The notes below the pieces were generated by a model that saw only the letters and a program-made list of their open reading frames with translations, did no database searches and was not told the DNA's origin. The translations under genes were made by a program, and so were the position numbers. A DNA stretch of 64,000 nucleotides from an uncultured Methanosarcinales archaeon (lineage in GTDB: Archaea > Halobacteriota > Methanosarcinia > Methanotrichales > Methanotrichaceae), in contig CAIQHB010000009.1 of NCBI GenBank assembly GCA_903871465.1, positions 1 through 64,000 on the forward strand, written 5' to 3'. This document shows positions 39,127 to 52,328 of this stretch, in pieces; positions within the stretch are counted from its first letter, which is position 1, and each line of letters starts with the position of its first letter.

Positions 39127-39921
39127 CTAAGATAACTCTGCTAGCTTCGCGTCTAAGTCCAGAGCTCGCTTACGAATCTCTGAAGCTGCCTTTGCCACCA
39201 TATCTTTGGCCACAATGCATCCACTGCCCTCAATGGAGACCACGAAGGAATCCAAGACAGGCGAGAGCGTTATGGCTGCGGCCTCACACGCCCCTATACA
39301 GAGCTTGCACAGAGAGCATTCCAGGATATTTGTAGCTTTCGCTCTGCCCTCTTCTATGACTAGAATATTGCGGGGACAGACCTCGACGCACTTTCCGCAT
39401 CCGTCACAGGCTTCACTTATGGCGAAGCTCGGCTGATTCTTGTAGCCGCACAACGTTCCAGCCTGCCACTTGGTATGATCTTTGCCCACGCGTTTTGTAG
39501 CAAAGCCTTCCATGACCAGCTTCTCTCCATCACCTAAGATGACGATGGGAATCTTCTTGAAGGCGGACTTCACACCCGGATCGGTGAACTGAATGTCCTC
39601 GGAGTAGACCATGCCCGGCCCTTCCTTTGAGAGCATAAAATCCACTCTGCATCCCGGACAGCCTGTGCCGCCACACTGGCATTCCTCCGGCTGGGAGAAC
39701 ACATCCAAGTCCTCTGCACGCAAGGGGATCTCTCCGATTCTTAGAGAGAGCTGCTCATCGAAAAGCACCGAAGTGTTGTCATAGAGGTTGATCTCATCTA
39801 TGGCCAGCACCGGCACCTCACTCATGCATGCCCGACGGATGCCATTGGCGAAAGCGGCTGTAACGCCGCTGAGGAGGTACCGGATGCGGTCCTCCCTCAG
39901 CTCAAGCAATTCGAACTTCAA
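39127..39921 (-). CDS. rpo3: DNA-directed RNA polymerase subunit D (Rpo3) with ferredoxin-like domain
   Basis: A 264-residue homologue of bacterial alpha and eukaryotic Rpb3, which together with subunit L starts polymerase assembly. The N-terminal core reads VTAAFANGIRRACMSEVPVLAIDEI. A Cys-rich insert holds CQCGGTGCPGC, then two ferredoxin-type clusters, CDGCGKCVEVCP and CSLCKLCIGACE (about 165-215), typical of Rpo3 with 4Fe-4S clusters in methanosarcinal archaea. It closes the uS13-uS4-uS11-Rpo3 operon, starting three bases after uS11. Confidence 0.97.
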   Translation of the reverse strand: MKFELLELREDRIRYLLSGVTAAFANGIRRACMSEVPVLAIDEINLYDNTSVLFDEQLSLRIGEIPLRAEDLDVFSQPEECQCGGTGCPGCRVDFMLSKEGPGMVYSEDIQFTDPGVKSAFKKIPIVILGDGEKLVMEGFATKRVGKDHTKWQAGTLCGYKNQPSFAISEACDGCGKCVEVCPRNILVIEEGRAKATNILECSLCKLCIGACEAAAITLSPVLDSFVVSIEGSGCIVAKDMVAKAASEIRKRALDLDAKLAELS

Positions 39922-39924
39922 GCT

Positions 39925-40314
39925 TTACACCCTTCGACCCCTCTTTCCTCCCTTGGGCTTCGTTCCATCGTGAGGTATGGGGGTCGCATCTTCAATCCTG
40001 CCTATCCTCAGTCCCGCTCGCGCCAGAGCGCGTATGGCTGCCTGAGCGCCCGGTCCTGGAGACCTCTGCTTGTTACCGCCGGGTGCGCGCACTTTAACGT
40101 GAACCCCGACAATTCCCTTATCCTTCACAGCATCAGCGACCTGCATGGCCATCTGCATGGCTGTGTAGGGAGAACTCTCGTCCCTGGCTGCCTTTACCAC
40201 CATGCCGCCCGAGATCTTCGCCAATGTTTCGGCTCCGGTCTGGTCGGTAATAGTAATAATCGTGTTGTTAAAGGACGAGAAAATATGGGCAATGCCCCAT
40301 TTTCCTTCTGCCAT
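39925..40314 (-). CDS. rps11: Ribosomal protein uS11
   Basis: A 129-residue 30S platform protein. Signature segments are [20 protein letters not shown] near the N-terminus and [30 protein letters not shown], with a basic C-terminal tail [13 protein letters not shown] that binds rRNA. Second-last gene of the operon. Confidence 0.98.
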
Positions 40315-40851
40315 TTATCCTTCCACCCTGGGTGTTCTGGATGCCCTTTCCGGATGGCCTTCCTTGGCCATGGGGGAACCCATGTAATAGTCAATGCTCA
40401 TTTCCTCGCCCCGCTTTACCAGATAGCCCGGCACATCTACTCTGCGCCCGGATACCTGGACATGGCCGTGAACGATGAACTGCCTGGCCTGCTTCAAAGA
40501 ATTGGCGAGCCCCTGACGGTAGACTTGCGTCTGCAGTCTCCTCTCCAAAACGTCGTTGACCTTCATGGAGAGAATGGCGTCAATATCTCCTTCCTCTTTC
40601 AGCATACCCAGCTTCTTGAGACGGTTGAGAATGGCTTCCGCTTCGGGAGGCGCCTGTCCCATAGATACTGCAGCGAGCATATTACGGCTGGCCTGTCTGT
40701 ACTTCCTGAGCACAGCCTGAGCCTTCCAGAGCTCTCTCTTGTTGCGCAGTCCATAGGCCTTGACGATCTCTACTTCACCAGCGATGCGTTCCGCTTGCCA
40801 GGGAGTGCGTGGCCTGGCATACATCTTACGATTCTTGCCTGGATATCCCAT
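40315..40851 (-). CDS. rps4: Ribosomal protein uS4
   Basis: A 178-residue 30S assembly protein in the archaeal form: YPGKNRKMYARPRTPWQAER at the N-terminus, LQTQVYRQGLANSLKQARQF and the S4 RNA-binding motif HGHVQVSGRRVDVPGYLVKR. The start of uS11 abuts its stop. Confidence 0.98.
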   Translation of the reverse strand: MGYPGKNRKMYARPRTPWQAERIAGEVEIVKAYGLRNKRELWKAQAVLRKYRQASRNMLAAVSMGQAPPEAEAILNRLKKLGMLKEEGDIDAILSMKVNDVLERRLQTQVYRQGLANSLKQARQFIVHGHVQVSGRRVDVPGYLVKRGEEMSIDYYMGSPMAKEGHPERASRTPRVEG

Positions 40852-40861
40852 CTTTTACCAC

Positions 40862-41464
40862 CTACTCCTTGGTTGCTGCGGGTGCAGCTGCTGGTGCTAC
40901 TGCCTTTCGGCTAACGCCTACGATGGCGCCTGTTCTTCCACTGGATCTGGTTCTCTGGCCCCTTACACGCAGGCCGCGTTCATGCCTGATGCCCTTGTAG
41001 CTCCTCATCTTCTTCATGAGGTCCAGGTCTTCGCGAAGGGTCATATTGAGGTCCAGGCCCATGACGTGGATATCGGTGCCGGTTTCAATATCGCCGCGCC
41101 GGTTGACCATCCAGGGGGGCAGAATCTTGGTGGCGTCCTCTTCGATGACCTTCTTCAGCTTATCAATCTCCGTATCGGGAAGCAAGCCGAGGGTTGCGAA
41201 GGGATCTACACCTGCTCTATCGGTAAACAGCTTGGCGCATCTGCGGCCCACACCCTTGATGCCCGTCAGGGCCATGTGGACCTGCTTCTTTCCGGCCAGG
41301 TCTGTATTAAGAATACGAACTATATGCCTGAGATCTTCATCTACGGCCTTTTTAACAGGCTTATCATCGCCCTTTTTGGGCTTGGCCGCTTTCTCTTTTG
41401 TTACTTTCTCTTTTGGATCCTTATCTTTTGTTTCTTTCTCTTTTGTCTCTTTCTCTTTTGCCAA
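40862..41464 (-). CDS. rps13: Ribosomal protein uS13 with Lys/Glu-rich N-terminal extension
   Basis: A 200-residue protein. The conserved part begins at DLRHIVRILNTDLAGKK (about residue 44) and includes GIKGVGRRCA and GIRHERGLRVRGQRTRS, the head-domain RNA contact. The first 42 residues are an unusual low-complexity stretch (KEKETKEKETKDK repeats). The start is TTG at 41464, seven bases after a clear GGAGG; no ATG or GTG occurs before the conserved part, so the extension is probably translated. Archaeal uS13 is usually about 150 residues. The C-terminus also has an Ala/Pro-rich tail. Confidence 0.96.
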   Translation of the reverse strand: MAKEKETKEKETKDKDPKEKVTKEKAAKPKKGDDKPVKKAVDEDLRHIVRILNTDLAGKKQVHMALTGIKGVGRRCAKLFTDRAGVDPFATLGLLPDTEIDKLKKVIEEDATKILPPWMVNRRGDIETGTDIHVMGLDLNMTLREDLDLMKKMRSYKGIRHERGLRVRGQRTRSSGRTGAIVGVSRKAVAPAAAPAATKE

Positions 41465-41595
41465 GTTAGTCCTCCAGAAGTTTAGTACTTTCTGGATCAG
41501 CCCCGGGTCAGAGCCCGACGCCGCCCGCTTACCACGTTGTGGGGCGAATTAAATCCATTGAGCCAAAGTGAAGTTATGCTTCTCGTATAAAAGAC
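41465..41595. promoter_or_regulatory. Leader and promoter region of the ribosomal operon
   Basis: The 131 bases hold the GGAGG ribosome site and a GC-rich inverted patch. On the minus strand a weak TTTAAT-like element (about 41547-41553) lies upstream. The exact promoter cannot be fixed by eye. Confidence 0.3.
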
Positions 41596-42012
41596 TTATG
41601 AGGTTTTCAGCTCGATCTTGTTATCCTGGGCCCACTCACGCAGGGCCTCTTCTTCTCTTTGGCTCTCGAAATCGTACCAGTCCTGAAGGAGGTTCTTCTG
41701 CTCCAGGAAGTCTTTGAACCTTCTGTAGGCTCCCCTTCTGCTGAAGATCTGCCGGACGCGGTCAAGTTCGTCAGCCAAATGCTGCTCAGCAAAGTCGAAG
41801 ACAAGCCGCTGGCCCAAATCGAGATCGTTCTTATGGGGGATCACAACGAAGTTATCGCAATCAAACTTGTCTTCATCAAGTTCATCGAAGGTCCCCATCT
41901 CGGAATGGAAATATATTTCACCATTATCCAGACAGAGAACCGCTCTATTCATCCCGTATGCGTCTGAGCTTACGAAGGAGAATGCATTCTGGATTTCGTC
42001 TAATGTGACCAT
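41596..42012 (-). CDS. UPF0158 family protein
   Basis: A 138-residue acidic protein with the family pattern: LDEIQNAFSFVSS, a strand-turn with CLDNGEIYFHSE, NFVVIPHKNDLDLGQRLVFDF and RRGAYRRFKDFLEQKNLLQDWYDFE near the end. Its function is unknown; relatives are found in scattered bacteria and archaea. It forms an apparent pair with the coiled-coil protein gene 15 bases upstream. Confidence 0.75.
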   Translation of the reverse strand: MVTLDEIQNAFSFVSSDAYGMNRAVLCLDNGEIYFHSEMGTFDELDEDKFDCDNFVVIPHKNDLDLGQRLVFDFAEQHLADELDRVRQIFSRRGAYRRFKDFLEQKNLLQDWYDFESQREEEALREWAQDNKIELKTS

Positions 42013-42027
42013 ATTTTTCCCTCTGAT

Positions 42028-42369
42028 CTACTTATCTTTTTCTATAATTTTTTCCAGCTCAGCCTTCCTGGCTTGAAGCACGCTTATTTTTTGTTTGATT
42101 TCAGCTATCTCTTTCTTGATCTTCCGCAGCTCGTTCTTGCCCTTGGCTTTCTCCAGGTATTCCGATCCCAGCTCCGCCGTAATATACTCTTCGAGCTGGC
42201 GCCTTAGAACCCTGACAAAAGGGCTTCCCCATACGCAAGCGTACCGGCATTCAAGTTTGCCTGCCTCTATGCCTTTGATGATGAATTCCTGATCAACCTT
42301 GTACTCTTTTCTTGCCGTTTTATCGCTGAGCGTCGCGCCCTTCCGATTCCATTCGCCATATTCAGCCAT
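42028..42369 (-). CDS. Conserved hypothetical protein with C-terminal coiled coil
   Basis: A 113-residue protein. The N-terminal two-thirds (MAEYGEWNRKGATLSDKTAR, FIIKGIEAGKLECRYACVWG, FVRVLRRQLEEYI) look like a compact nucleic-acid-binding domain of the type found in many prokaryotes, and the last 40 residues form a heptad coiled coil rich in Lys, Glu, Ile and Leu. No function is known. It is likely co-transcribed with the UPF0158 gene. Confidence 0.7.
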   Translation of the reverse strand: MAEYGEWNRKGATLSDKTARKEYKVDQEFIIKGIEAGKLECRYACVWGSPFVRVLRRQLEEYITAELGSEYLEKAKGKNELRKIKKEIAEIKQKISVLQARKAELEKIIEKDK

Positions 42370-42446
42370 TGTCCTCTTTCAGCATACCTTCATGCAATGA
42401 TGGAAGTTCCAGGATCAAAGGGCCTGCCCATGCAGAAAACATGTAA

Positions 42447-42596
42447 TCAGGTTCTCGACCTTGCCAGCTCTCTTATCCTTTTGGAATCAGCTTCAAGCTT
42501 ACCCAATAATGGATCGTCCTTGAGAACTCCAAAGTATTTGGACAAATCCGTTCCGTCTTCAGAAGCCTTCTTATACAGATCAGCTGCCGAATGCAT
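42447..42596 (-). CDS. Small hypothetical protein (49 aa)
   Basis: A short open frame beginning MHSAADLYKKASEDGTDLSK and ending ADSKRIRELARSRT. The helical, charged composition resembles small antitoxin-like or regulatory proteins, but there is no clear ribosome site and no neighbouring toxin in the same direction. Support is moderate. Confidence 0.35.
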   Translation of the reverse strand: MHSAADLYKKASEDGTDLSKYFGVLKDDPLLGKLEADSKRIRELARSRT

Positions 42597-42910
42597 GTTT
42601 CATTCACTCAGTAATTCTTGGTTTTGGCATATCATTTGCCGCATGAACCAGTCAGTAATTTCTGTCATCGGAGCCAAACCCCTGAAGATCTAGCTGGCTG
42701 AATAGTACAACCTGAATCCGGCATAAAGTTTTCGGCGCTTCATATTGGATTACGAATCTGCCTCTACCACCCTAATCTATGCCCCAGCACCACCAGGCCA
42801 AGACTGCCGTTGGCTATGTTGAAGCAAGCCTTTCGGGGCGAGCTTTGAATCGAGCAAATCGATTTTGATCTCTCGAAAGCTTTTTTAGCTTCAGGCAGCA
42901 ATCTACTATC

Positions 42911-43120
42911 ATGAATCTCAAGGTTGTTCTTCAGGAGGCCGAAGAGGGCGGCTACATTGTGAGCTGTCCAGCACTTCCCGGATGTCACTCCCAGGGCGAT
43001 AATGCTGAAGAGGCTCTGAAGAACATCAAAGAAGCAATAGTGGGCTGCCTGGAGTCCCTGGCAGAAGAGCGAACAAGGTTGCCAGGTACTTCCGGACGGA
43101 TCGTAGAAGTAACTGTCTGA
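42911..43120 (+). CDS. HicB-family antitoxin
   Basis: A 69-residue protein: QEAEEGGYIVSCPALPGCHS and DNAEEALKNIKEAIVGCLES, the HicB partial RNase H fold that binds and blocks the HicA toxin. No DNA-binding domain follows, so this is a minimal HicB. It precedes the hicA gene by six bases. It may be part of the toxin-antitoxin pair that marks the left edge of the accessory island. Confidence 0.9.
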   Translation: MNLKVVLQEAEEGGYIVSCPALPGCHSQGDNAEEALKNIKEAIVGCLESLAEERTRLPGTSGRIVEVTV

Positions 43121-43126
43121 CCTCAG

Positions 43127-43366
43127 ATGGCCCCAAAGCTGCCGCTGATTTCCGGCAAAGATGCTATCAAAGCCTTCACCAGAGCAGGCTGGCATCTGGA
43201 TAGGATCTCGGGAAGTCATGCCATATTGAGGAAAGAAGGATCTGCTGTTACTCTTTCGGTTCCATTACATCCAGAATTGAGAAAGGGTCTGCTCCGCTCT
43301 TTAATAAAGGATGCTGCTATTGATTTAGAAGAGTTCCTCGCTTACTTGATCGTTCTAGGACTATGA
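43127..43366 (+). CDS. HicA-family mRNA interferase toxin
   Basis: A 79-residue double-stranded-RNA-binding-fold protein: KLPLISGKDAIKAFTRAGWH and ISGSHAILRKEG, with the catalytic His in the GSHAI motif, and HPELRKGLLRSLIKDAAID. It would cleave mRNA in the ribosome when the HicB partner is lost. It follows hicB on the same strand. Confidence 0.9.
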   Translation: MAPKLPLISGKDAIKAFTRAGWHLDRISGSHAILRKEGSAVTLSVPLHPELRKGLLRSLIKDAAIDLEEFLAYLIVLGL

Positions 43367-43370
43367 ATTT

Positions 43371-44156
43371 TCATACTATTATCATTCCTTCCATATAGAG
43401 AGCCGCCAGGCCCGATATCTTCACGCGCTCGCCCGCATGGGTGCAGAAGAGTTCGCCGCCCCGTTTCGAGACCTGGAAGGCATGCAAATCGTTCTTGCCC
43501 AGCTTTCCCGCCCAATAAGGAGCCAGGACAGAGTGGCTGGAACCCGTCACCGGGTCCTCCGGTATGCCCAGTCGGGGCGCGAAGAAGCGTGATACGAAGT
43601 CAAACCAGTCCCCGCGGGCTGTAATGATGATGCCTCGACACCCTATCCGGGCCAGAGCGAGGAAATCGGGCTGCACTTCTCTGACAGTCAAATCGGTGTC
43701 CAGCACAACCAGCAGATCCTCTGCGCTGCCGAGCGTTTCTTGAGGCGTGACTCCCAAGGCCTCCTTGAGCCCGGCGGGAGGGCTTATGATATGGGCGGTA
43801 ATTGCGGGAAAGTCCATTTCGAGGAGATCATTTCGCCTGGTCACGACAAGCTCTCCGCTCCGGCGAGTCTGAAATCGGATGCATTCCCCGGGCCAGTTCT
43901 GACAATTGAAGAGAACAAAAGCGCTCGCCAGTGTTGCATGGCCGCAAAGCGCAACCTCTGTGACCGGAGTGAACCATCTGAGATCAAAGCCATCGGCATT
44001 GGGGACCAGGAATGTCGTTTCAGAAAGGTTGTTCTCGAAAGCTATGGCCTGAAGGATCGGGTCGTCGAGCCAGCGATCCAGGAGGCATACTGCAGCCGGG
44101 TTGCCGGAAAAGATCTCGGATGTGAATGCATCGACCTGGTATATCGGAATTTTCAT
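43371..44156 (-). CDS. PhzF family protein
   Basis: A 261-residue protein with the PhzF fold of two pseudo-symmetric domains. Motifs: QVDAFTSEIFSGNPAAVCLL, NNLSETTFL with the conserved catalytic Glu, DLRWFTPVTEVALCGHATLA, and GIPEDPVTGSSHSVLAPYW near the C-terminus. PhzF-type enzymes isomerise small metabolites such as a phenazine precursor; the substrate here is unknown. It overlaps the VOC gene upstream by four bases, so the two may act on one substrate or on a self-made metabolite. Confidence 0.93.
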   Translation of the reverse strand: MKIPIYQVDAFTSEIFSGNPAAVCLLDRWLDDPILQAIAFENNLSETTFLVPNADGFDLRWFTPVTEVALCGHATLASAFVLFNCQNWPGECIRFQTRRSGELVVTRRNDLLEMDFPAITAHIISPPAGLKEALGVTPQETLGSAEDLLVVLDTDLTVREVQPDFLALARIGCRGIIITARGDWFDFVSRFFAPRLGIPEDPVTGSSHSVLAPYWAGKLGKNDLHAFQVSKRGGELFCTHAGERVKISGLAALYMEGMIIV

Positions 44157-44557
44157 TGCTTCACGCTTCTTTTCACAAGCTGGATGGTGTTGCCCCAGGG
44201 GTCGCTCAGGACTATCAGGTTCTCACCGGGCCTCTTGACTGGACATTTTTCGATGAACTTTGCACCCTTTGACACCAGAAATTCGGCATCTTTGTCCGGG
44301 TCGTCGCTCTTCAATGCGATATGCAATTGCAGGTGGTGACTCATCACTTTTGTCAGAGGCTGGACATCAGGAACCTTTCCCAGCTCGAGCATAACCCGAT
44401 CGCTGCCATCCGTGAGAAACGCCACTCCTTTTTCTTCATCCTCTGCTGAGAACTTGATATTGAAACCCAGGGTATCCCTATACCAGTTCGCCATCTCGAT
44501 GGGCTTCTCTACGGCGATTCCGATGTGCTCGATATCATACTTCTTCATGGTTAACAT
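44153..44557 (-). CDS. VOC (glyoxalase/bleomycin resistance) superfamily protein
   Basis: A 134-residue protein with two beta-alpha-beta-beta-beta units: HIGIAVEKPIEMANWYRDTLG and HHLQLHIALKSDDPDKDAEF, then LSDPWGNTIQLV. His and Glu at the start and end of the units may bind a divalent metal. The family includes methylmalonyl-CoA epimerases and glyoxalases; the exact activity cannot be told. It forms a two-gene unit with the PhzF gene. Confidence 0.85.
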   Translation of the reverse strand: MLTMKKYDIEHIGIAVEKPIEMANWYRDTLGFNIKFSAEDEEKGVAFLTDGSDRVMLELGKVPDVQPLTKVMSHHLQLHIALKSDDPDKDAEFLVSKGAKFIEKCPVKRPGENLIVLSDPWGNTIQLVKRSVKQ

Positions 44558-44587
44558 CTATATTTTAATAACAGAAATCATCGGCAC

Positions 44588-47500
44588 TCAGAGTTCCCTT
44601 TTGCCCACAAGCGACTCGCGCAAATCTATGGCGACTGGATCTTGAGGCTGGATCTGGAGAAGGCTCAATAGAAGCTCAAACATCGTGTCAAAGTAGGCTT
44701 CTATGTTACGGAAGTCGGCATAGACGCGGCCCTGTAACAGAAGAGGAAAGGCTGACTCATCGGTGCCCTCCAGAAGGACAGGCAGCACGCTTTCCTTCTC
44801 CGCCTCAGTACCGATCATCCGTTTGCCGATGAGGTCTCCCTCCGCTGCTACGACGAAGCTTCGCATCGGCTCATTATTATCGTACTTCTTCCGGTAGAGC
44901 GGCGTGCCTACTACTACGACTCGGTCTGTCTTTCCTGCACGCTCCACGAATCTCGGCACGTTGGCACCGATGCGCGCATTCTCCCACCGATCCAGTACAA
45001 CCATGACACCAGCTTTCTGTAAATCCGTTGCCAGCCTCCTCTCCACCCAACGCTCCTGGTCTGGATTGCCCCAGGCATAGCTAATGAAGCATTCCGGCAC
45101 GGCGATCTTCTGCTCCGTCACATAATTCTTCAAGCGGAAGAGCACCTGCTCGAACCGGGAGCGCTGATCAGCGGCCCGGCGATTCGCCTCCAACTCCTCT
45201 GCCTGCTGCTTGCTAAGGTGAATCGGCTGGTCGGCTTTCGGCAGCATGATCTTCTCGCCACATCGGCTACAGAAAGCGAACTCTGCACCACTGGCCATCT
45301 GCTCGCGGATCAAAGTACGGTCTAGTGGATGACCCTTCGAGCAGACCACGGGTTCAAAGCGTTGCACTGTGAGGTTGCGTCGGGCCAGGAAGGCCTCGAA
45401 GAGAGCCTGAAAAAGCGTTCGAATTGAGGCAGGCGTGCTTGTGCCGAAGTATAGCACGAAATCCAACTCGCCTTCCCGCTCTGCTTCCAGGCGGAAACCG
45501 CATACATGACCTTTTCCAACCTCGTAGCGGGCGTGATCGCTCCATTGATTCGTTCGAGTGAAGGTCTGCGTATAACCCATGAGAACCATCAGCGAATCAT
45601 ACACGTTCCCCACTGCACCGCTCATTCTGTAGGCAACACCATCCTCGGTGGGAGCATCGTCTGCGATCAACGGCTTCTTCAAGTTGATGAGTTCAGGGAA
45701 GACAATATAGATGCCGCCATTCAGCGGATCCGTTTCGCGGAAGCAGATGTTGTGTTCAAGGAACAGGATAGCTGCGGAGTCAAGCAGGATGTCTTTCTCG
45801 GCCTCAGTGAGCTTCTCCAACTCGGGAAACTCGTATCCGCCCGATAGCAGTCGCTGCTCCTCTAGGGAGCCTAGCCCTTTCTGATTGCGTCGGGCTTCCT
45901 GCACTAAGGACGCCATTAGGTTGTTGAGAAGTTCCGGTGCGAGCAGTATGCGTGGCTCACCTTTTGATGTCTTTAACAGTGTTACAAAGCCTTGGGTCGC
46001 CAGATGTCCGACTGCAGTCAGCATCTCATCGCCACTAAACTTCCAAGTGCGATCCGTCTTTTCCAATCGCTGGCGAAGTTCTTCAGGCGTCAGGACCACC
46101 TCAAGACGGCGGCTATCCTCTTTAAGATTGAGGACGAGGTCCCTGATTCGCTTGAGCGTCTCAGTGGTGATAGTTGCCGGTTTTGCGTCCCAGTGAATCA
46201 GGATGTTCATTTGCTGAATCAGCTTATCTATTCCTTCGCCAGTTTTCGCACTAGTGGACAGGTAGGCAGCGATGCCGCGTTGTTTGCAGAAAGCATCCAG
46301 CTCTTCCTGCGTTAGACGTGGAGTGCCGAGATCAGATCGTGCGGCAATCAAGATCGTCGGCGTTCCACCGGGTGGATGAGCTTCGACCTTCAGTTGCTTA
46401 AGCCAGAACTCGACGCCACTCAGCGGTTCGTCATTGCGGGTCGGGTCGAAGAGCACGAGCGCCAGATCAGCGTCATCAAGAAATAGCGCATGGGTGAGAC
46501 GATAGTCAGGTTGGCCTGCAAGATCCCACAATACTGCCTCACACTGTGCGCCATCGAGCCTTTGCTTGCAGAGTTGTTTTAGCAGCCAGAACTGCTGGCC
46601 ATGCGTAGAGGAATGCTCCTTGAACTCGCCATGGGCCAGCCGCCAGCCAAGTCCCGTCTTGCCGACCCCGGAGTCGCCCACAAGCACGATCTTCGCGCTG
46701 GCATAACGCGTAACCTCTGCGGAAAATAGGTTCGGATCTAGTGAATAGATTTGTCCATCAATAGTTCGAATCCGAATCCTGCTCGATTGTGTTGGAATAT
46801 CAACGAATTCTCCAGGTGAGATAACTAGCGAACTCGCGGCATCGCTGGAACCATCAGGTTGTAAAATGTCGATCGTGATCGGTTGGATATTGAGAACGCG
46901 AATGCCGAATTGGCCTGATCCAGAGAGATAACCTACGCGCAAATCGTCTCCAATTTTTAGCACATCAAGAACCACTGTAGACATGTCTGAAAAATCCAAT
47001 TCTGCAAGATTCGAAGGACTACTCGATGTTGATGGAAGTGAATTGCGCCGGATTATTCGCCTAGTGGAAAATTTTCGCAGTTGTATCAATAACGGATTCA
47101 GATTTGCAGTTTTTGGCAATCGATTCCCCATCTCCACAACCCATTCCTCGAGAGCAGGGCGATCATTCTTGGAAATGGCTTTGACCGCACGCCAGATATT
47201 TTGTTCAAATACTTTCTTGCTTTCAGGATCCAGGGTATTTTCGTTCAGGCTCAGGTAGACCAATTCCTCTTCCCAACGAATGATGGGGGAGATTGACTCA
47301 TGGCAGTTCTTAATCACATTATGAGCCGCTTCGATGAGCTCTTGGTCTTCCCGAAGACATTCACGCAGCAATTGGCTAAATTCAGGGAGTAAGGTTATGT
47401 TATCCGGACCACGGCTTTCGACAAAAAAGCTAAACCATAGAGCCGCTTCAGTTGCCACGGTGGGACGATGGTCCGCCGAAAACCTATCACCTAAAGCCAA

Positions 47501-47662
47501 ACGTAACGCACGAAGAAGTTCAGGCTCAATTCTTCTTGCCAGCGATGCAAGCATCCCCAATGAGACAACGTCAGGTCGTATGGAAGAGTATTTTTTCAGA
47601 TGCTCCCTTGCAGAATTCATCTCCTTGAGGGTCAATAATCCAAATTCCATCGTCTCTCCCAT
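44588..47662 (-). CDS. Roc-like GTPase - zinc ribbon - TIR domain protein
   Basis: A 1024-residue multidomain protein. Residues 1-200 are helical, HEAT-like. About 225-310 are beta-rich. The GTPase holds G1 GDSGVGKT (329-336), G3 WDLAGQ (379-384), a G4 site changed to ARSD (441-444) and G5 STSAKTG (469-475). About 500-760 resemble a COR-like region. A zinc ribbon (CSKGH and CSRCGEK) comes next, then a coiled stretch and a C-terminal TIR domain (about 854-1010; CFISYAWGNPDQERWVERRL, LDRWENARIG) that may cleave NAD+ when triggered. It is the last gene of a six-gene operon. Start may be M5 at 47650. Analogy: ROCO and STAND-type conflict proteins. Confidence 0.82.
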   Translation of the reverse strand: MGETMEFGLLTLKEMNSAREHLKKYSSIRPDVVSLGMLASLARRIEPELLRALRLALGDRFSADHRPTVATEAALWFSFFVESRGPDNITLLPEFSQLLRECLREDQELIEAAHNVIKNCHESISPIIRWEEELVYLSLNENTLDPESKKVFEQNIWRAVKAISKNDRPALEEWVVEMGNRLPKTANLNPLLIQLRKFSTRRIIRRNSLPSTSSSPSNLAELDFSDMSTVVLDVLKIGDDLRVGYLSGSGQFGIRVLNIQPITIDILQPDGSSDAASSLVISPGEFVDIPTQSSRIRIRTIDGQIYSLDPNLFSAEVTRYASAKIVLVGDSGVGKTGLGWRLAHGEFKEHSSTHGQQFWLLKQLCKQRLDGAQCEAVLWDLAGQPDYRLTHALFLDDADLALVLFDPTRNDEPLSGVEFWLKQLKVEAHPPGGTPTILIAARSDLGTPRLTQEELDAFCKQRGIAAYLSTSAKTGEGIDKLIQQMNILIHWDAKPATITTETLKRIRDLVLNLKEDSRRLEVVLTPEELRQRLEKTDRTWKFSGDEMLTAVGHLATQGFVTLLKTSKGEPRILLAPELLNNLMASLVQEARRNQKGLGSLEEQRLLSGGYEFPELEKLTEAEKDILLDSAAILFLEHNICFRETDPLNGGIYIVFPELINLKKPLIADDAPTEDGVAYRMSGAVGNVYDSLMVLMGYTQTFTRTNQWSDHARYEVGKGHVCGFRLEAEREGELDFVLYFGTSTPASIRTLFQALFEAFLARRNLTVQRFEPVVCSKGHPLDRTLIREQMASGAEFAFCSRCGEKIMLPKADQPIHLSKQQAEELEANRRAADQRSRFEQVLFRLKNYVTEQKIAVPECFISYAWGNPDQERWVERRLATDLQKAGVMVVLDRWENARIGANVPRFVERAGKTDRVVVVGTPLYRKKYDNNEPMRSFVVAAEGDLIGKRMIGTEAEKESVLPVLLEGTDESAFPLLLQGRVYADFRNIEAYFDTMFELLLSLLQIQPQDPVAIDLRESLVGKREL

Positions 47663-47663
47663 C

Positions 47664-48671
47664 TCAACGAATCTGGTGCTTGTTTCGCATCACTGTTGCG
47701 ATTGAAGTATCATAATCCCAAACGAATGAATTGGGAATGCGTCGTTTCAATGCATTAGGCCAATATGAAATAGGAGCAGGGATCAGCGACACCATTGGGC
47801 AGTTATTTCTTCGTGCTATATCTATCAAAGGATTCCATGGATCAAGATCGATTCGGCCAAGTGACAGTTCTCCACTAATTCCAAAATCCGAAACTAACAG
47901 TAAGGATGCATTCCGTGGAAGTTGAAGTGGGGGTGGGGAAAACCACCTTATTCGCGGTCCATCAATCAACCAGTGATCGACTTCAAACCACCATGCTTCA
48001 ACCTTGAATCGCCCGATAAGCCTCTGAAGCTTTTCTACGAGTTCCTTTTCATCTCTCCAGAAGGGCTGCAATGATTCGGATCGATCTAAGAATAATAAGA
48101 TACCACGTTGCAGCGTCGGACGTTTTCGAAAAGGCAGCCGATCCAATAGCTCTCCTCTAATCATTTTTCTTTCGAGCATTTTCCAGTCGATCTTATCTGA
48201 AGCGATTAATGTTGACAACATTATGCTCATAAGGCCTCTGAACCATTTATCCTGCAATAATGGCTGATAGCTTGGCCTTCTCATATGCGAGTCTATGTTG
48301 GTTGGTTCTAGTGCTTCGGTGGTCGCAAGGATAGGATCGTCAAGGATCTCGAAGGTTTGATCTTCATAGCCAATCGGCTCAAGAATTTTTGCGGGCAAAT
48401 CTGTCAGGAACTTAGGATCAGGAGATGGCATAGATACATTCAACTCCGGAGCAACATCCGCATCAACTTTTTCCAGTGAATCTTCAATCAACGGCAATTG
48501 CCCTTCAACTCCAGAAGGCTGTAGTGCATCGATTCCCCTCCAGTTGAGCCCCAATGACTCAGCAATCAAGGCAAGAGTCTCATTGCTTTCTGGCTTAAGT
48601 AATTTCAGAGCCGTCAGTAGTTCCGCAAGGCCGACTTTAGAGCCATTATGACTAGTCAACGCATTCACCAT
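47664..48671 (-). CDS. vWA-like protein of the TIR operon (SAV_2336-type)
   Basis: A 335-residue protein. The N-terminal 60 residues (LAELLTALKLLKPESNETLA) form a helical adaptor as in SAV_2336-related conflict proteins. After an acidic linker, a core begins at LQRGILLFLDRSESLQPFWR; the D-R-S-E-S (196-200) matches the MIDAS metal site of vWA domains, followed by FEVDHWLIDG and SLLLVSDFGISGE. It sits between a MoxR ATPase and the GTPase-TIR gene. Known: MoxR and vWA proteins often work as a pair in which the ATPase remodels a partner held by the vWA protein. Confidence 0.72.
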   Translation of the reverse strand: MVNALTSHNGSKVGLAELLTALKLLKPESNETLALIAESLGLNWRGIDALQPSGVEGQLPLIEDSLEKVDADVAPELNVSMPSPDPKFLTDLPAKILEPIGYEDQTFEILDDPILATTEALEPTNIDSHMRRPSYQPLLQDKWFRGLMSIMLSTLIASDKIDWKMLERKMIRGELLDRLPFRKRPTLQRGILLFLDRSESLQPFWRDEKELVEKLQRLIGRFKVEAWWFEVDHWLIDGPRIRWFSPPPLQLPRNASLLLVSDFGISGELSLGRIDLDPWNPLIDIARRNNCPMVSLIPAPISYWPNALKRRIPNSFVWDYDTSIATVMRNKHQIR

Positions 48672-48729
48672 TCAGACACTGTTCTATTCAAACCTTTCAC
48701 CTATGTACCGAAGTTACAGTATACCTATT

Positions 48730-49758
48730 CTACTTAATGAACACATTTTGTTCAACTTGATGCCAGAGCTCCGACTCGGGGTCAATCTCGAGTCTAAAGC
48801 ATACCTTAAGCGCATCTAAGAACTCGGCGGTGCTAGGTTCCCTTCCCAGGCGTCTTTTTTTTGCCTCTTGTCGCAACTTGTAATGAGTTCTTGCCACCTT
48901 GCAGACCAGTTTCTCCCCGTCATGATGGGATTCTATTAGAGTGCTCATGTGTAGCTTTGCAATTTCCGTCAAACGTTCAATTTGCTTATTTTCATCTTCT
49001 GGTTCTTCAATGATATGAACCACACATCTGCGAACGAAAGCGTCTGGAAGATCGCGTTCTTGATTTGTTGTGATAATAATTAATAAGCCTCCAAAATGAT
49101 TCGGCGAATTTTTTCTAGGATCAGGTTCGAGAGTTTTTCTCTCTATCAGCAGATCCAATTCGTCAATCCTAAAACGATTTAGGCCGAGGACTTCCAATAG
49201 ATCGTTGGGCAATTCAGGATCTGCTTTGTCAATCTCGTCTATGAGGACGACCGCACGAAAGGGGTCGCGTTTATAATTGATCTCCGCGAGCGGCTCGTCT
49301 TCATTGTCTCTCACAGCGACTTTCCCTTTAGGGAGCGACTTTCTCTGTGATATAAAATCTATCGCATTCTCGCGATTGAACGCCCACCACATAACACCAG
49401 GAGTAACGTAACGCCTAGGGTCAATATCGGATTTCGCCTGTGCATCTCGCAAGCGAGCCAATGCGTCGAATTTCCAGAGCAAGTCTTTGGCTTCAGTTCG
49501 ACCGGTAATGGTTGTTTCATAATAGCGCCAATTGAGGTTCCGAGCGACAAAAGGAGCAAATGATGACTTGCCCGATCCAGGTTGACCGCGAATGAGCAAC
49601 GGGCGTTGAGTAACAATAGCGATCTCGGCCGCTAATTGTAGATTAGGATCATGCAAGTAAACCATGCCGGAACGATCGTCCGGTCCTACCTCGACTGCTG
49701 ACGCACCAAGATTATTCTTCCACGGGAGGAATTGGTTATAATCGACAATGGACTTCAT
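48730..49758 (-). CDS. MoxR-family AAA+ ATPase
   Basis: A 342-residue AAA+ protein with Walker A GQPGSGKS (58-65), Walker B AVVLIDEIDKAD (169-180), sensor 1 LLIIITTNQERDLP and a following RRC arginine element. The order and spacing match MoxR ATPases, which remodel protein complexes together with vWA partners. A GAGGT ribosome site lies six bases before the ATG. It follows the second TIR gene by 11 bases and precedes the vWA gene. Confidence 0.85.
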   Translation of the reverse strand: MKSIVDYNQFLPWKNNLGASAVEVGPDDRSGMVYLHDPNLQLAAEIAIVTQRPLLIRGQPGSGKSSFAPFVARNLNWRYYETTITGRTEAKDLLWKFDALARLRDAQAKSDIDPRRYVTPGVMWWAFNRENAIDFISQRKSLPKGKVAVRDNEDEPLAEINYKRDPFRAVVLIDEIDKADPELPNDLLEVLGLNRFRIDELDLLIERKTLEPDPRKNSPNHFGGLLIIITTNQERDLPDAFVRRCVVHIIEEPEDENKQIERLTEIAKLHMSTLIESHHDGEKLVCKVARTHYKLRQEAKKRRLGREPSTAEFLDALKVCFRLEIDPESELWHQVEQNVFIK

Positions 49759-49769
49759 TTTCTACCTCG

Positions 49770-51083
49770 CTAATCTCTCAAATACACTTGCGAAATTGCA
49801 GCTTCTAAACGACTTTTCAACTCTGATAATTCATCGCGTTTCTTTTCGTCTAAGGGTGGTAATGGTATCCCACCGATGGCATTAAAACTCTTCAAAACTC
49901 GGGCAGAATTCCCAACTTGCACAAGAAAAATGATCCTTGGATATAACTGACGCAATTCCTTGAGAATCGGTTCTCTAGCGTACTCCGGCGGAAGCGCGCA
50001 GATTGCGACATCACTCGGTTTGTTCAATCGTTCTGCAATATCCTGGGGAAGATGCGACATATCGCTATCGTCCTCATTTAGAGGCTTAATAATTTTATCT
50101 CGAATCGTTCGCTCAATCTGACATCTGATTGCACCGGGACCTTCGCCAGCACCACCTCCTACGGAAAATGCCCATATTGAACCGGTTTTATAGTAAATCT
50201 CGATCTTTGCTCTATTCAGATACTCATCTATTATCGCTTGCTCTCTTGCATTAACTATTAAAAGTCCAATTTCCTCGGGCTTGCGGGATGCACACAGAAT
50301 GATTTCCATCGCCTCATTTGGAACCCATTTGGCTGTTAGACGCTTCTTGAAATAATATGCGTCATCAATATCTAATTCACGTAATAGTTCACGAAATGCT
50401 CCAATGCTTTCTATTGAAGATTTGTGATGCATGAGTTCTACTAAGGATCGGCATAAGCAGTTCTGCTTGCGATCTCCAAGTTTATTCCACAAATCCGCTC
50501 CGATTGGTGACTCGAACTCCAACTGCTCTGCAGCATCCTGCAGAGCAGTTATATTGACATTTCGCAGTAATCCAACCACTTGTTGAACCCATGGGCTCAT
50601 TTTTGGTTTCTTAGCTCTATTGCGATCTAGTTTTGATAAAATAAACTCCGCAAACTCTTCAGGTGAACGCGAGTGATCATCCGTGATAACCTGAATCTCC
50701 TTCAGTTGAAACGGCTCATATTGCCTAAAACATGTCTCACTAAGGCACTTATCATCCAGCAAAACTGGTATGACCTGGAAATCTGGATCAATAAACTTGT
50801 GGAAGCAAAGGATTAATGCCTCATCCCTAACCCATGTAGACTCGGAAACCGCCCTCTTGTTGAAAAGAATGATTCCCGCATGTGCTTCCGCGAGATTATG
50901 TAGGATCTCCATTCGCCATTTGACTCCAGGGCTTATGCTGCTATCAATGAACACAAACCACTTCTTTTCTTCTTTGTCTTCTTTAGACAAAGCGGCACAT
51001 AGGCATTCTTTAAGCCTGACAGAGCGATCCTCAGGAGGCAATCCGTTCGTCGAATGACTTATGAACAATGTTGGATTACTCAT
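49770..51083 (-). CDS. TIR domain protein with unknown C-terminal region
   Basis: A 437-residue protein. Residues 1-150 are a TIR domain: LFISHSTNGLPPEDRSVRLK, FVFIDSSISPGVKWRMEI, GIILFNKRAVSESTWVRDEA (a W-x-x-x-E pattern that includes the likely catalytic Glu) and ILCFHKFIDPDFQVIPVLL. Residues 155-250 are helical and 250-420 contain alternating helices and strands (EEIGLLIVNAREQAIID, DVAICALPPE, IIFLVQVGNS), possibly a sensor. AAGGTGG precedes the ATG. It lies 18 bases after the membrane protein gene. Confidence 0.8.
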   Translation of the reverse strand: MSNPTLFISHSTNGLPPEDRSVRLKECLCAALSKEDKEEKKWFVFIDSSISPGVKWRMEILHNLAEAHAGIILFNKRAVSESTWVRDEALILCFHKFIDPDFQVIPVLLDDKCLSETCFRQYEPFQLKEIQVITDDHSRSPEEFAEFILSKLDRNRAKKPKMSPWVQQVVGLLRNVNITALQDAAEQLEFESPIGADLWNKLGDRKQNCLCRSLVELMHHKSSIESIGAFRELLRELDIDDAYYFKKRLTAKWVPNEAMEIILCASRKPEEIGLLIVNAREQAIIDEYLNRAKIEIYYKTGSIWAFSVGGGAGEGPGAIRCQIERTIRDKIIKPLNEDDSDMSHLPQDIAERLNKPSDVAICALPPEYAREPILKELRQLYPRIIFLVQVGNSARVLKSFNAIGGIPLPPLDEKKRDELSELKSRLEAAISQVYLRD

Positions 51084-51101
51084 GATTCTCTTGCCACCTT
51101 T

Positions 51102-51539
51102 TTATAAGACGACCTTCTTCGCTATCAATACCATCACAAAAAGAGTCGTGTAGAATGGCCAGATTGAAAACGACAACACACTAGCCCAGATAGTCTTGCT
51201 CATGCTCCCTGAAGGCACTACCGCATAGAGATCTGATGCGACGATCTTGCCTTGGTGAAGCTTGTCGATGAACTTGTTATACGACAAACGGAACATCTTC
51301 TCCAAGGCGAGGTAATAGGCATCGAGAGCAAAGAAAAGGATAATGGGTATGAGGGCAAGCCAAGCATATTCAGGTTTCCCCTTGTCTGCTATGAGAACTA
51401 GAATGGCAGACACCAAGGTGATGCACCATGTCTTGCATGATGCACTGTTCGACGCCATGCGCTGGATGACAGTCTGCGTGATTCCCAGGTGGGCATGAAC
51501 CGCTTGCGAGTTCTCTCGGAACGAATTTTCTTCAGTCAT
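51102..51539 (-). CDS. Three-helix membrane protein paired with a TIR gene
   Basis: A 145-residue protein with a soluble N-terminal helix (AVHAHLGITQTVIQRMASNS), hydrophobic segments at about 37-51, 58-79 and 115-140, and a linker rich in charged residues between the second and third. It starts 12 bases after the ThsB-like TIR gene. Small membrane proteins next to nucleotide-signal enzymes commonly act as pore-forming effectors; here that role is inferred from the pairing alone. It contains no enzyme motif. Confidence 0.7.
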   Translation of the reverse strand: MTEENSFRENSQAVHAHLGITQTVIQRMASNSASCKTWCITLVSAILVLIADKGKPEYAWLALIPIILFFALDAYYLALEKMFRLSYNKFIDKLHQGKIVASDLYAVVPSGSMSKTIWASVLSFSIWPFYTTLFVMVLIAKKVVL

Positions 51540-51551
51540 TATCTCATTGCT

Positions 51552-52049
51552 TCAGTAGTTGCTTCGAATTCTGATCGCTTCTTCTACCCATGCTGCCAAG
51601 TTTTGCCTAATATGGTCATAAACAGTTGCGCTCGTATAGCAGGACGGATCGTAAGCCTTGACAATAGAGGATAGTCGCGTGGTTCCATTTCCAAAGGGAA
51701 TACTGTCAAATGGGTTGCTTCCCCTTGTACACTGTTTCTGATCTCGATCTTTTAAGTTGTGAATGTGCACACCCAACACGCCTTTGCCGCTGTTCCAAGC
51801 CTCAACGATTTCATGATTGATCCACTTGCGACCTGCCGTATTCTCGCCGATGAGCACTACTGTACATGATGTTCCATTCATTTGGTCGTTGATCCAGCGT
51901 TTGATGGCGAAATCTCCATTACGCGTGATGGTCTCCCAGTCGTTATCAGTAGCAGGACGGTTGCCTTCAATTACGCCCATATTCCTTACCTGCGACGCTC
52001 TCCAATTATCTGGTTTATAATGGAAGCTGTAGAATATCCTACGTGCCAT
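51552..52049 (-). CDS. ThsB-like TIR protein (DUF1863)
   Basis: A 165-residue TIR protein of the type found in Thoeris defence. It begins ARRIFYSFHYKPDNWRASQV, then TSCTVVLIGENTAGRKWINH with the W-I-N-H-E pattern (catalytic Glu), and WNSGKGVLGVHIHNLKD. Known: ThsB TIR enzymes sense infection and convert NAD+ into a signal that activates a separate effector. There is no ThsA-type gene nearby; the adjoining membrane protein could be the effector. It is the first gene of the operon, with a TTATAA-like element about 80 bases upstream (near 52132). Confidence 0.85.
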   Translation of the reverse strand: MARRIFYSFHYKPDNWRASQVRNMGVIEGNRPATDNDWETITRNGDFAIKRWINDQMNGTSCTVVLIGENTAGRKWINHEIVEAWNSGKGVLGVHIHNLKDRDQKQCTRGSNPFDSIPFGNGTTRLSSIVKAYDPSCYTSATVYDHIRQNLAAWVEEAIRIRSNY

Positions 52050-52328
52050 AGAATGCCCCTTTCATCTTCTTAGCGATGTTGCGTGATAAAGATCATCTTC
52101 GCCATTGCATCAAGCTATTATTCCATAAGAGGTTATAAGGTTACTCCATTCTTTTCTGGCCAAAAGCTTGGAAATTGCTCACAGAAGACTGGCTCCTTTC
52201 TTCGATCATCACCGCCTCTGACAGAATGCGACCCATCGGACCGAAGGCGATGATTTTAACTCGCCCTTGTGCCCTTCAAATTTGCGCCTTCACTTGCGGC
52301 AGCAATTCCACAGCCGGATCGTCATCTC
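52050..52328. other. Promoter region of the TIR operon and convergent spacer
   Basis: No gene is seen. The minus strand has a CTTATAACC element near 52128-52136 that could start the six-gene operon, and an AAAGGGG ribosome site just before the first ATG. The right part is the 3' end of the AlkZ-like gene region. Confidence 0.4.

What the first reader, a model, noticed from the sequence alone, without database searches (positions are those of the whole stretch)
44588..47662. GTPase with altered G4 motif fused to a zinc ribbon and TIR domain
The order is HEAT-like helices, Roc-like GTPase, COR-like region, zinc ribbon, TIR. G1 and G3 are intact, but the guanine-specificity motif reads ARSD instead of NKxD, so nucleotide preference may differ. 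The zinc ribbon between the switch and the TIR is unusual.
Basis: partly seen in the sequence, partly recalled or inferred. Interest (0 to 1): 0.5.

Follow-up and report, generated by a model that had tools for sequence, protein, structure and literature searches.

The report
Archaeal Roco–SEFIR protein in MoxR–vWA operon
A methane-making archaeon carries a probable antiviral cell-suicide gene in which a GTP-controlled switch and a TIR-like enzyme appear to have been joined to the front end of an executor from a different defence operon.

Summary
The 1024-aa gene is real and sits in a Methanothrix genome. Its Ras/Roc GTPase, zinc-ribbon ligand pattern and TIR-type domain are confirmed. The C-terminal domain is closest to the SEFIR subtype. 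The COR region has no Pfam match, but a low-confidence model matches solved Roco COR domains. "HEAT-like" is unconfirmed: helices plus a small β stretch, modelled poorly.

The two features called unusual are ordinary among relatives. G4 reads A-R-x-D in 13 of 17 family members, with the aspartate in all 17. The ribbon ligands are in 17 of 17 and align with a cysteine cluster after COR in 7 of 11 classical Rocos.

What stands out is the chimera. Residues ~30-308 match a module at the same operon slot in two Streptomyces plasmids, there carrying TPR-CHAT or NB-ARC-TPR. The rest is 72-74% identical to WD40-headed Rocos from another Methanothrix and a Verrucomicrobiaceae MAG. GC3 is 0.43 before the join and 0.62 after. 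The gene closes an operon with MoxR, vWA-like and TIR genes.

Most likely a MoxR-vWA conflict system whose executor is a Roco-gated SEFIR NADase; function is inferred. AP-GTPase/COR proteins with swappable effectors were already predicted (eLife 2020, 2021): a new variant of a known kind.

The parts
44588..47662 (-). Roco-SEFIR gene, 1024 aa
   Evidence: ORF; only match in own genome, no internal stop
46739..47662 (-). N-terminal module 'Ndom' or dock (aa 1-308), helices plus small beta stretch; aa 30-308 shared with Streptomyces MoxR-vWA operons
   Evidence: BLAST E 2.8e-22 (28% id) and 1.1e-7 (22% id) to L017/L018 proteins; alignment A2; GC3 0.425
46715..46753 (-). fusion boundary, aa ~304-316
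   Evidence: L014 homology starts at aa 304, Ndom homology ends at aa 307-308, GC3 rises here. Against: the L013 match begins earlier, at aa 239
46208..46693 (-). Roc/Ras GTPase domain (aa 324-485), G1 and G3 intact
   Evidence: Pfam PF00071/PF08477; VIA Z up to 14.6 to Rab32
46331..46342 (-). G4 motif ARSD (aa 441-444)
45353..46192 (-). COR domain (aa ~491-770), divergent, no Pfam COR hit
   Evidence: hhalign, Foldseek to 6hlu/3dpt/4wnr
45260..45343 (-). zinc ribbon, C774 H778 C798 C801
   Evidence: four possible ligands in 17 of 17 family members
44636..45097 (-). SEFIR/TIR effector domain (aa 856-1009)
   Evidence: PADLOC bSEFIR; PDB 5y8f SEFIR E 2.6e-7; Pfam scores TIR_2 above SEFIR
44840..44842 (-). 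E941, glutamate aligned with the conserved SEFIR Glu
47664..48671 (-). vWA-like protein, 335 aa, D-x-S-x-S motif; 1 nt before the Roco start
   Evidence: homologous to L017/L018 proteins; vWA identity weak (VWA_CoxE E 0.034 for the L017 homologue); gap
48730..49758 (-). MoxR AAA+ ATPase, Walker A/B intact
   Evidence: AAA_5 E 5.7e-10, bpMoxR just at cutoff; 44% and 41% identical to Streptomyces MoxR; motifs in A3
49770..51083 (-). TIR protein with unclassified C-terminal region (TIR-X), 437 aa
   Evidence: TIR_2 E 2.2e-7; homologues at same slot in L017/L018
51102..51539 (-). small protein of PDC-M50A type, hydrophobic stretches by eye
   Evidence: PADLOC E 4e-32
51552..52049 (-). ThsB-type TIR protein (PDC-M50B/ThsB)
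   Evidence: Pfam ThsB_TIR E 1.7e-28; PADLOC ThsB E 1.3e-72

Best explanation
The gene is the executor of a MoxR-vWA conflict (antiviral, probably abortive-infection) operon. Its front (aa 1-308) is the constant dock that couples it to the vWA/MoxR pair. Its back (aa ~309-1024) is a Roc-COR-zinc-ribbon switch carrying a SEFIR-class TIR enzyme. Proposed working: an infection cue is sensed through TIR-X and the MoxR-vWA chaperone; MoxR-vWA remodels the dock; the Roc domain changes nucleotide state and COR rearranges the dimer; the SEFIR domains are brought together and cleave NAD+, stopping the cell and the virus. Shown by sequence: domains, motifs, operon order, the chimeric architecture, three kinds of module after the dock and four kinds after Roc-COR-zinc. 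Inferred: sensing, direction of the GTP step, NADase activity, antiviral role.
For: Dock homologues at the same operon slot in both Streptomyces loci found: SLATT - TIR - MoxR - vWA-like - [Ndom-TPR-CHAT] (L017; CHAT by Pfam, TPR by the record) and TIR - MoxR - vWA-like - [Ndom-NB-ARC-TPR] (L018). The vWA-to-dock-gene junction is tight in all three: 1 nt gap here, 4-nt overlaps in L017 and L018 (coordinates). Switch-plus-effector half 72-74% identical to WD40-Roco-SEFIR proteins L013 and L014. GC3 0.425 in the dock, near vWA 0.42, MoxR 0.46 and TIR-X 0.40, versus 0.62 in the rest of the gene. COR fold supported by Foldseek. SEFIR by PADLOC and PDB 5y8f, with E941 at the position of the conserved Glu. 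Among the 17 related cores the C-terminal domain is SEFIR/TIR (4), cyclase (3), metallophosphoesterase (5) or DUF4365 (5). The same chromosomal site holds a Roco-cyclase in G010 and an LRR-Roc-COR-TIR gene in G021. MoxR-vWA and AP-GTPase/COR conflict systems with swappable effectors are predicted in PMC7159879 (sections 9, 15, 20, 22 read) and PMC8195603 (section 15 read).
Against: No experiment on this family was found in the searches made (listings). The 335-aa neighbour's vWA identity is weak: no Pfam hit, hhalign to the Nostoc vWA P 0.12. TIR-X shows no VMAP-C match, so membership of that named class is not met. The two first genes of the operon do not share the low GC3 (PDC-M50A 0.61, ThsB type 0.49). 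A GC3 step at the same boundary also exists in WD40-headed L013 (0.39 vs 0.56) and L014 (0.54 vs 0.77), so composition alone does not prove a recent graft. The L013 match by BLAST starts at aa 239, inside the dock. Dock identity to Streptomyces is only 28% and 22%. Effector class follows the core clade, 5 changes for 6 labels, so C-terminal exchange is old, not frequent. The AF2 models are of low confidence (pLDDT 52 and 48).
Confidence: 0.58

Rival explanations
1. The Roco-SEFIR protein is an independent single-gene immune receptor (like its WD40-headed relatives) that merely lies downstream of a MoxR-vWA operon; the N-terminal module is its own sensor.
For: 15 of the 16 other family members have WD40 in the same frame and the 16th (L009) has it as a separate upstream frame; four of them (L006, L007, L008, L031) also have an N-terminal TIR. 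No MoxR or vWA was seen in the flanks read of L013, L014, L050 (tblastn of the window proteins) or among the annotated genes around L020 and L021.
Against: The module is homologous to the N-terminus of proteins that directly follow the vWA-like gene in two Streptomyces operons, its GC3 is near that of vWA, MoxR and TIR-X, and the start codon is 1 nt from the vWA stop.
Confidence: 0.22
2. The SEFIR domain is a non-catalytic adaptor that recruits the TIR proteins of the same operon (TIR-X, ThsB type) by TIR-TIR contacts; the enzyme is one of those.
For: Three TIR-type proteins lie in one operon. The window SEFIR has A-A-E where the other SEFIRs aligned read GYE or GTE. TIR-X and the ThsB-type protein carry W-x(3)-E, an arrangement I recall from TIR NADases.
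Against: E941 is kept in both close relatives, L013 and L014, and other relatives carry outright enzyme domains (cyclase, phosphoesterase) at the same place.
Confidence: 0.25
3. The altered G4 makes it a switch for another nucleotide (e.g. XTP, ATP or a viral-infection signal) rather than GTP.
For: N and K of NKxD are replaced by A and R in 13 of 17 family members.
Against: The Asp is kept in 17 of 17, L042 keeps TKLD, G5 is SAK in 11 of 17, and eight archaeal classical Rocos also lack NKxD; the Roc fold matches ordinary Ras/Rab chains.
Confidence: 0.07
4. The chimera is an assembly artefact of a fragmented genome assembly.
For: The genome is in 81 contigs; sharp composition step.
Against: The open frame runs through the join, the operon order matches Streptomyces, the contig is syntenic with three other genomes of the genus on the ribosomal side, and the dock and L014 homology boundaries meet within a few codons.
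Confidence: 0.06

Closest known systems
Prokaryotic AP-GTPase(Roc)-COR conflict proteins with variable C-terminal effectors (PMC8195603, section 15 read)
   Same: Roc GTPase plus COR as switch, swappable effector at the C-terminus, TIR among the effectors
   Different: Those are described with LRR N-termini; here an operon-linked dock stands where relatives have WD40 repeats. COR has diverged beyond Pfam detection and is followed by a zinc ribbon. The word SEFIR does not occur in the main text of this paper or of PMC7159879 (word searches)
MoxR-vWA ternary systems, vWA-linked AP-GTPase/COR (PMC7159879, sections 9, 15, 20, 22 read)
   Same: MoxR then vWA gene order, TIR-bearing first gene possible, AP-GTPase-COR associated with the vWA component (reported there for cyanobacteria and verrucomicrobia); a passage notes a few archaeal occurrences of such systems, e.g. 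Methanosarcina mazei
   Different: The executor is a separate gene headed by a dock module instead of a fusion to vWA; the first component shows no VMAP-C match; the dock matched no Pfam model
LRR-Roc-COR Roco proteins (CtRoco 6hlu, M. barkeri Roco2 4wnr, LRRK2)
   Same: Roc-COR tandem fold; cysteine cluster after COR in seven of the eight archaeal members compared, the eighth having no sequence there
   Different: No LRR, no kinase; sequence similarity of COR alone only marginal
Bacterial SEFIR domain (PDB 5y8f; PADLOC bSEFIR)
   Same: C-terminal domain aligns over 109 residues including the conserved Glu
   Different: Here behind a Roco switch; local motif AAE instead of GTE/GYE
Thoeris / PDC-M50
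   Same: The two first genes of the operon match ThsB and PDC-M50A/B
   Different: No ThsA match among the six operon proteins scanned; relation to the Roco gene is by position only

Membership tests
Roco (Roc-COR) proteins | Roc-type Ras-like GTPase domain | tested here: met
   PF08477 E 1.5e-18, above cutoff
Roco (Roc-COR) proteins | COR domain directly after Roc | tested here: met
   Foldseek 3dpt (COR only) E 1.6e-8, 6hlu E 4.6e-12 with 524 columns. hhalign with classical Rocos over Roc-COR-zinc E 5e-29, score 226, of which Roc alone gives score 178. Caveats: no Pfam COR-A/B, COR-only hhalign P 0.036 against P 0.17-0.52 in six controls, low pLDDT
Roco (Roc-COR) proteins | GTP binding and nucleotide-dependent dimer cycle | not testable with these tools
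   needs biochemistry; CtRoco cycle known to me from the abstract of PMC5714945
SEFIR/TIR NADase | TIR/SEFIR fold by sequence | tested here: met
   SEFIR E 4.2e-7, TIR_2 E 2.1e-12, 5y8f
SEFIR/TIR NADase | conserved glutamate | tested here: met
   E941 aligned by MAFFT and phmmer, kept in L013 and L014; that this Glu is catalytic is recalled from TIR enzymes
SEFIR/TIR NADase | NAD+ cleavage | not testable with these tools
   assay needed
MoxR-vWA ternary system (VMAP type) | MoxR AAA+ gene | tested here: met
MoxR-vWA ternary system (VMAP type) | vWA protein next to MoxR | tested here: inconclusive
   no Pfam hit; homologue VWA_CoxE E 0.034; D-x-S-x-S present; hhalign to Nostoc vWA P 0.12, aligned at the motif strand
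MoxR-vWA ternary system (VMAP type) | VMAP-C domain in the first gene | tested here: not met
   none at E<=0.1 in TIR-X or its two homologues, while the Nostoc control scores 4.5e-38; hhalign P 0.34
MoxR-vWA iSTAND ternary system | inactive STAND domain in the first gene | not tested
   no dedicated model or comparison was run; the general Pfam scan of TIR-X gave only TIR_2 at E<=0.1
MoxR-vWA beta-propeller ternary system | vWA with C-terminal beta-propeller | tested here: not met
   vWA-like gene is 335 aa with no Pfam hit at E<=1, although bpMoxR scores at its cutoff (27.2 vs 27)
Thoeris | ThsA effector beside ThsB | tested here: not met
   no ThsA among the six operon proteins

The most novel reading that the evidence does not exclude
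A Roc-COR-zinc-ribbon-SEFIR cassette has been transplanted, across a sharp module boundary, onto a MoxR-vWA operon in place of STAND or CHAT executors. AAA+ chaperone triggers and Roco switches would then be plug-compatible parts, with the MoxR-vWA pair acting as a dedicated loader (exchange factor) for a low-affinity Roc GTPase: a defined upstream regulator for a prokaryotic Roco protein.
Probability: 0.3. Interest if true: 0.68.

Novelty: new variant of a known kind. Interest (0 to 1): 0.5.

Why it matters
A 2019 Roco review says that very little is known of what bacterial and archaeal Roco proteins do, and that all prokaryotic ones identified so far belonged to the LRR-Roc-COR group (PMC6337361, passages seen). 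Here a Roc-COR switch sits behind a dock shared with STAND and CHAT executors; its relatives have WD40 heads and five effector types; and three Roco genes of different kinds, this one included, occupy one chromosomal site in three genomes of the genus. That makes the immune-switch idea directly testable: add GTP analogues, MoxR-vWA and an NAD+ assay. It also gives an example of how modules of AAA+-triggered and GTPase-triggered immunity may be recombined.

Tried and rejected
Viral collection: profiles of the Roco core (A1), MoxR (A3) and the dock (A2) found no relatives in viral contigs, so no phage carriage is claimed. Dock as C-terminal extension of the Nostoc vWA component: no similarity (hhalign P 0.62), rejected. 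TIR-X as VMAP: not supported. The VIA-align second look lists only Ras/Rab chains among its 50 rows because the GTPase fills the list, so it neither supports nor excludes COR. The dock model is of low confidence; no fold search was made with it, and HEAT is neither shown nor excluded. Altered nucleotide specificity: rejected as the main reading on the family alignment. Frequent shuffling of the C-terminal effector: rejected, effector follows core clade. Searches for SEFIR NADase papers (listings only) returned nothing I used, and the archaeal immune survey PMC12988326 holds none of the words Methanothrix, TIR, Thoeris, MoxR or Methanosarcin- in its main text (word search). Searches for Roc-COR or Roco with anti-phage terms (15 of 92 papers listed, 12 of 23 listed) showed no Roco defence experiment by title or abstract start.

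Dropped rows: L035 has no sequence in the zinc region and was removed before the COR-only and zinc-only comparisons (it counts among the 11). L032 (partial core), L038 (one TGA inside), L043, L011 and L012 were in neither the 17 nor the 11. The second hit of G016 (C111) and other weaker Roc-only hits were not analysed. L002, L022, L023, L024, L027, L028 repeat loci already held. In some searches several Pfam lists were cut at 25 rows; one search scanned the missing ends.
Full report
WHERE IT IS. The window is contig C9 of a 3.13 Mb genome in 81 contigs. It encodes archaeal S13, S11 and RNA polymerase subunit D. A same-genus genome (G012) holds a contig C47 of 14,371 bases, the number and length of the named record behind L013, Methanosaeta sp. 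PtaB.Bin018, so the host is a Methanosaeta (Methanothrix; synonymy recalled). The reported gene is a single 1024-aa frame on the minus strand.

WHAT THE PROTEIN IS. Pfam gives Ras/Roc within aa 324-485 and TIR_2/SEFIR within 858-995; PADLOC gives bSEFIR 1.4e-28; the best solved relative of the C-terminus is a bacterial SEFIR domain, 5y8f, E 2.6e-7, although Pfam's TIR_2 scores above its SEFIR model. The segment between has no COR-A/COR-B hit even at E 1 (list for the window core). Three other members whose full hit list was printed (L003 and L042 at E<=0.001; L050, the same gene as L009, at E<=1) also show none. Two other tests support a COR. Profile-profile alignment with 11 classical prokaryotic Rocos runs through Roc, COR and zinc region (E 5e-29, score 226, 467 columns); Roc alone gives score 178. 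With Roc removed, the COR part alone scores 21.5 over 224 columns (P 0.036) while five column-shuffled and one reversed control score 13.1-17.0, and COR plus zinc scores 39.3 (P 1.5e-4). And Foldseek of an AF2 model has only CtRoco, LRRK2 and M. barkeri Roco2 entries in ranks 1-15, the COR-only CtRoco entry among them. The model is weak (mean pLDDT 52, 4 sequences), so this is support, not proof.

THE TWO 'UNUSUAL' FEATURES. G4 is A-R-x-D in 13 of 17; the others read AGSDFD (L013), SQVD (L006, L031) and TKLD (L042); Asp is present in all 17. All 17 have four possible zinc ligands: 13 C4 and 4 C3H, the window among the latter. Of 11 classical Rocos, eight archaeal ones read SKx[NR] at G4, two from the Verrucomicrobiaceae genome NRQK and NKWC, and Nostoc NKSD; 7 of 11 have C-x-C-x3-C...C where the ribbon lies, 3 lack it and one has no sequence there. 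The homology of that cluster to the ribbon is plausible, not proven (zinc part alone: P 4e-4, probability 35%).

THE MODULES. Of the 16 other cores, 15 have WD40 repeats in the same frame and the 16th (L009) as a separate upstream frame; L006, L007, L008 and L031 have a TIR in front as well. After the zinc ribbon Pfam finds TIR/SEFIR (window, L013, L014b, L020), guanylate cyclase (L009, L029, L014a), metallophosphoesterase (L003, L004, L021, L030, L042; L021 also has a CHAT domain further on) or DUF4365 (L005, L006, L007, L008, L031). On a maximum-likelihood tree of these 17 and three classical Rocos the effector follows the core clade: 5 changes for 6 labels, the minimum (the long branch of L042 is of unsure place). 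So effector exchange is old.

THE CHIMERA. The window protein is 72% identical to L013 from aa 239 and 74% identical to L014 (Verrucomicrobiaceae MAG) from aa 304; both of those have WD40 N-termini. The window's aa 30-308 instead match the N-termini of two Streptomyces plasmid proteins (E 2.8e-22, 28% identity; E 1.1e-7, 22%). In both plasmids these proteins directly follow a vWA-like gene that follows MoxR that follows a TIR gene, the same order as here, and all four gene pairs are recognisably homologous by BLAST. What follows the dock differs: TPR-CHAT (CHAT by Pfam; TPR by the record), NB-ARC-TPR, or Roc-COR-zinc-SEFIR. GC3 is 0.425 in the dock, 0.40-0.46 in TIR-X, MoxR and vWA, and 0.62 in the rest of the gene, like four flanking chromosomal genes (0.63-0.64). 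The observed GC3 split is matched or exceeded by 20 of 1024 circular shifts and 0 of 2000 shuffles. Cautions: the first two genes of the operon do not share the low GC3 (0.49 and 0.61); WD40-headed L013 and L014 show a GC3 step at the same place too; and L013's match reaches back to aa 239.

DISTRIBUTION. With the core profile, matches at E <= 1e-120 occur in 5 of 392 Halobacteriota genomes sampled, the window's own included, and one partial match in G368 (2.9e-48) (phylum name recalled); in the phylum sample around the L014 genome, 1 of 387, that genome itself, matches at E <= 1e-60. With the whole protein, 9 of 60 relatives, own included, match at E <= 1e-58. The dock is found only in the window's own genome among 119 relatives and among 392 of its phylum, in 0 of 288 of the L014 phylum (no positive control there), and in 2 of 72,556 plasmid records. 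None of the three profiles found a relative in viral contigs.

THE SITE. The S13-S4-S11-RpoD cluster (S4 named by recall, the rest), a UPF0158 gene and a PhzF-like gene (named by recall) flank the operon. The PhzF-like gene matches at E <= 1e-30 in 4 of 26 genus genomes including the window's. In G010 the neighbour is a Roco-cyclase with a separate WD40 frame; in G021 it is an LRR-Roc-COR-TIR protein; in G020 no part of the 17 kb read matches the window Roco at E <= 1e-5. This looks like an exchange site for Roco-type genes; n is small.

MECHANISM. From the papers: CtRoco cycles between dimer and monomer with GTP (abstract of PMC5714945); [quoted passage not shown] As reported in PMC10907252 (passages), Kaur et al. 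predict that MoxR passes a signal from the VMAP sensor and that effectors are freed from the vWA protein, whereas the authors of PMC10907252 propose the reverse, with the vWA protein as sensor and the N-terminal domain of the VMAP as effector. Either direction fits here, since both TIR-X and the last gene carry TIR-type domains. My reading, dock as coupling and SEFIR as executor, is inference.

KNOWN OR NEW. PMC8195603 (section 15) already describes AP-GTPase-COR conflict proteins with at least 24 C-terminal effector domains including TIR, with LRR N-termini, and PMC7159879 (section 15) describes AP-GTPase-COR joined to vWA components in cyanobacteria and verrucomicrobia; my Nostoc locus L019 is of that type (EAD10-VMAP, MoxR, vWA-Roc-COR). 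New here, as far as the papers read and the searches show, are the divergent COR plus zinc-ribbon clade with WD40 or dock heads, the dock as a shared socket for three executor types, and an archaeal example with an apparent graft. That is a new variant of a known kind.

Noticed in passing
window 8968-36289 (-): A long minus-strand cluster with phage sheath, baseplate J, eCIS core and AAA proteins: a probable extracellular contractile injection system in a methanogen (seven of its ORFs scanned); DUF6519 and large unassigned proteins lie at its end.
   Followed up: partly
window 51102-52049 (-): ThsB-type TIR gene plus small protein matching PADLOC candidates PDC-M50A/B, just upstream of the TIR-X gene; in Streptomyces L017 a SLATT-type membrane gene takes the corresponding place.
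   Followed up: partly
L050, L051, L052 (and window 39127-53426): The same chromosomal site in four genomes of the genus holds the dock-Roco-SEFIR operon, a Roco-cyclase, an LRR-Roc-COR-TIR gene, or no Roco match.
   Followed up: partly
L014 3786-10172: Verrucomicrobiaceae MAG carries WD40-Roco-cyclase and WD40-Roco-SEFIR in tandem; the second is 74% identical to the archaeal protein, suggesting transfer between domains.
   Followed up: partly
L013 1-6865: The Methanosaeta PtaB.Bin018 relative lies directly after genes that look like type III CRISPR RAMP proteins (by eye; no family search made).
   Followed up: no
L018 5438-7510: The annotated TIR gene of the Streptomyces plasmid begins with a stretch matching DpdA (E 1.2e-47), perhaps a remnant of a DNA-modification gene or a wrong start.
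   Followed up: no
L050 8417-11584: WD40 and Roco-cyclase stand as two separate frames in G010, whereas relatives have them in one protein.
   Followed up: no
L021 4014-8345: The Nostoc plasmid relative carries two possible effectors after the zinc ribbon, a metallophosphoesterase and a CHAT domain.
   Followed up: no
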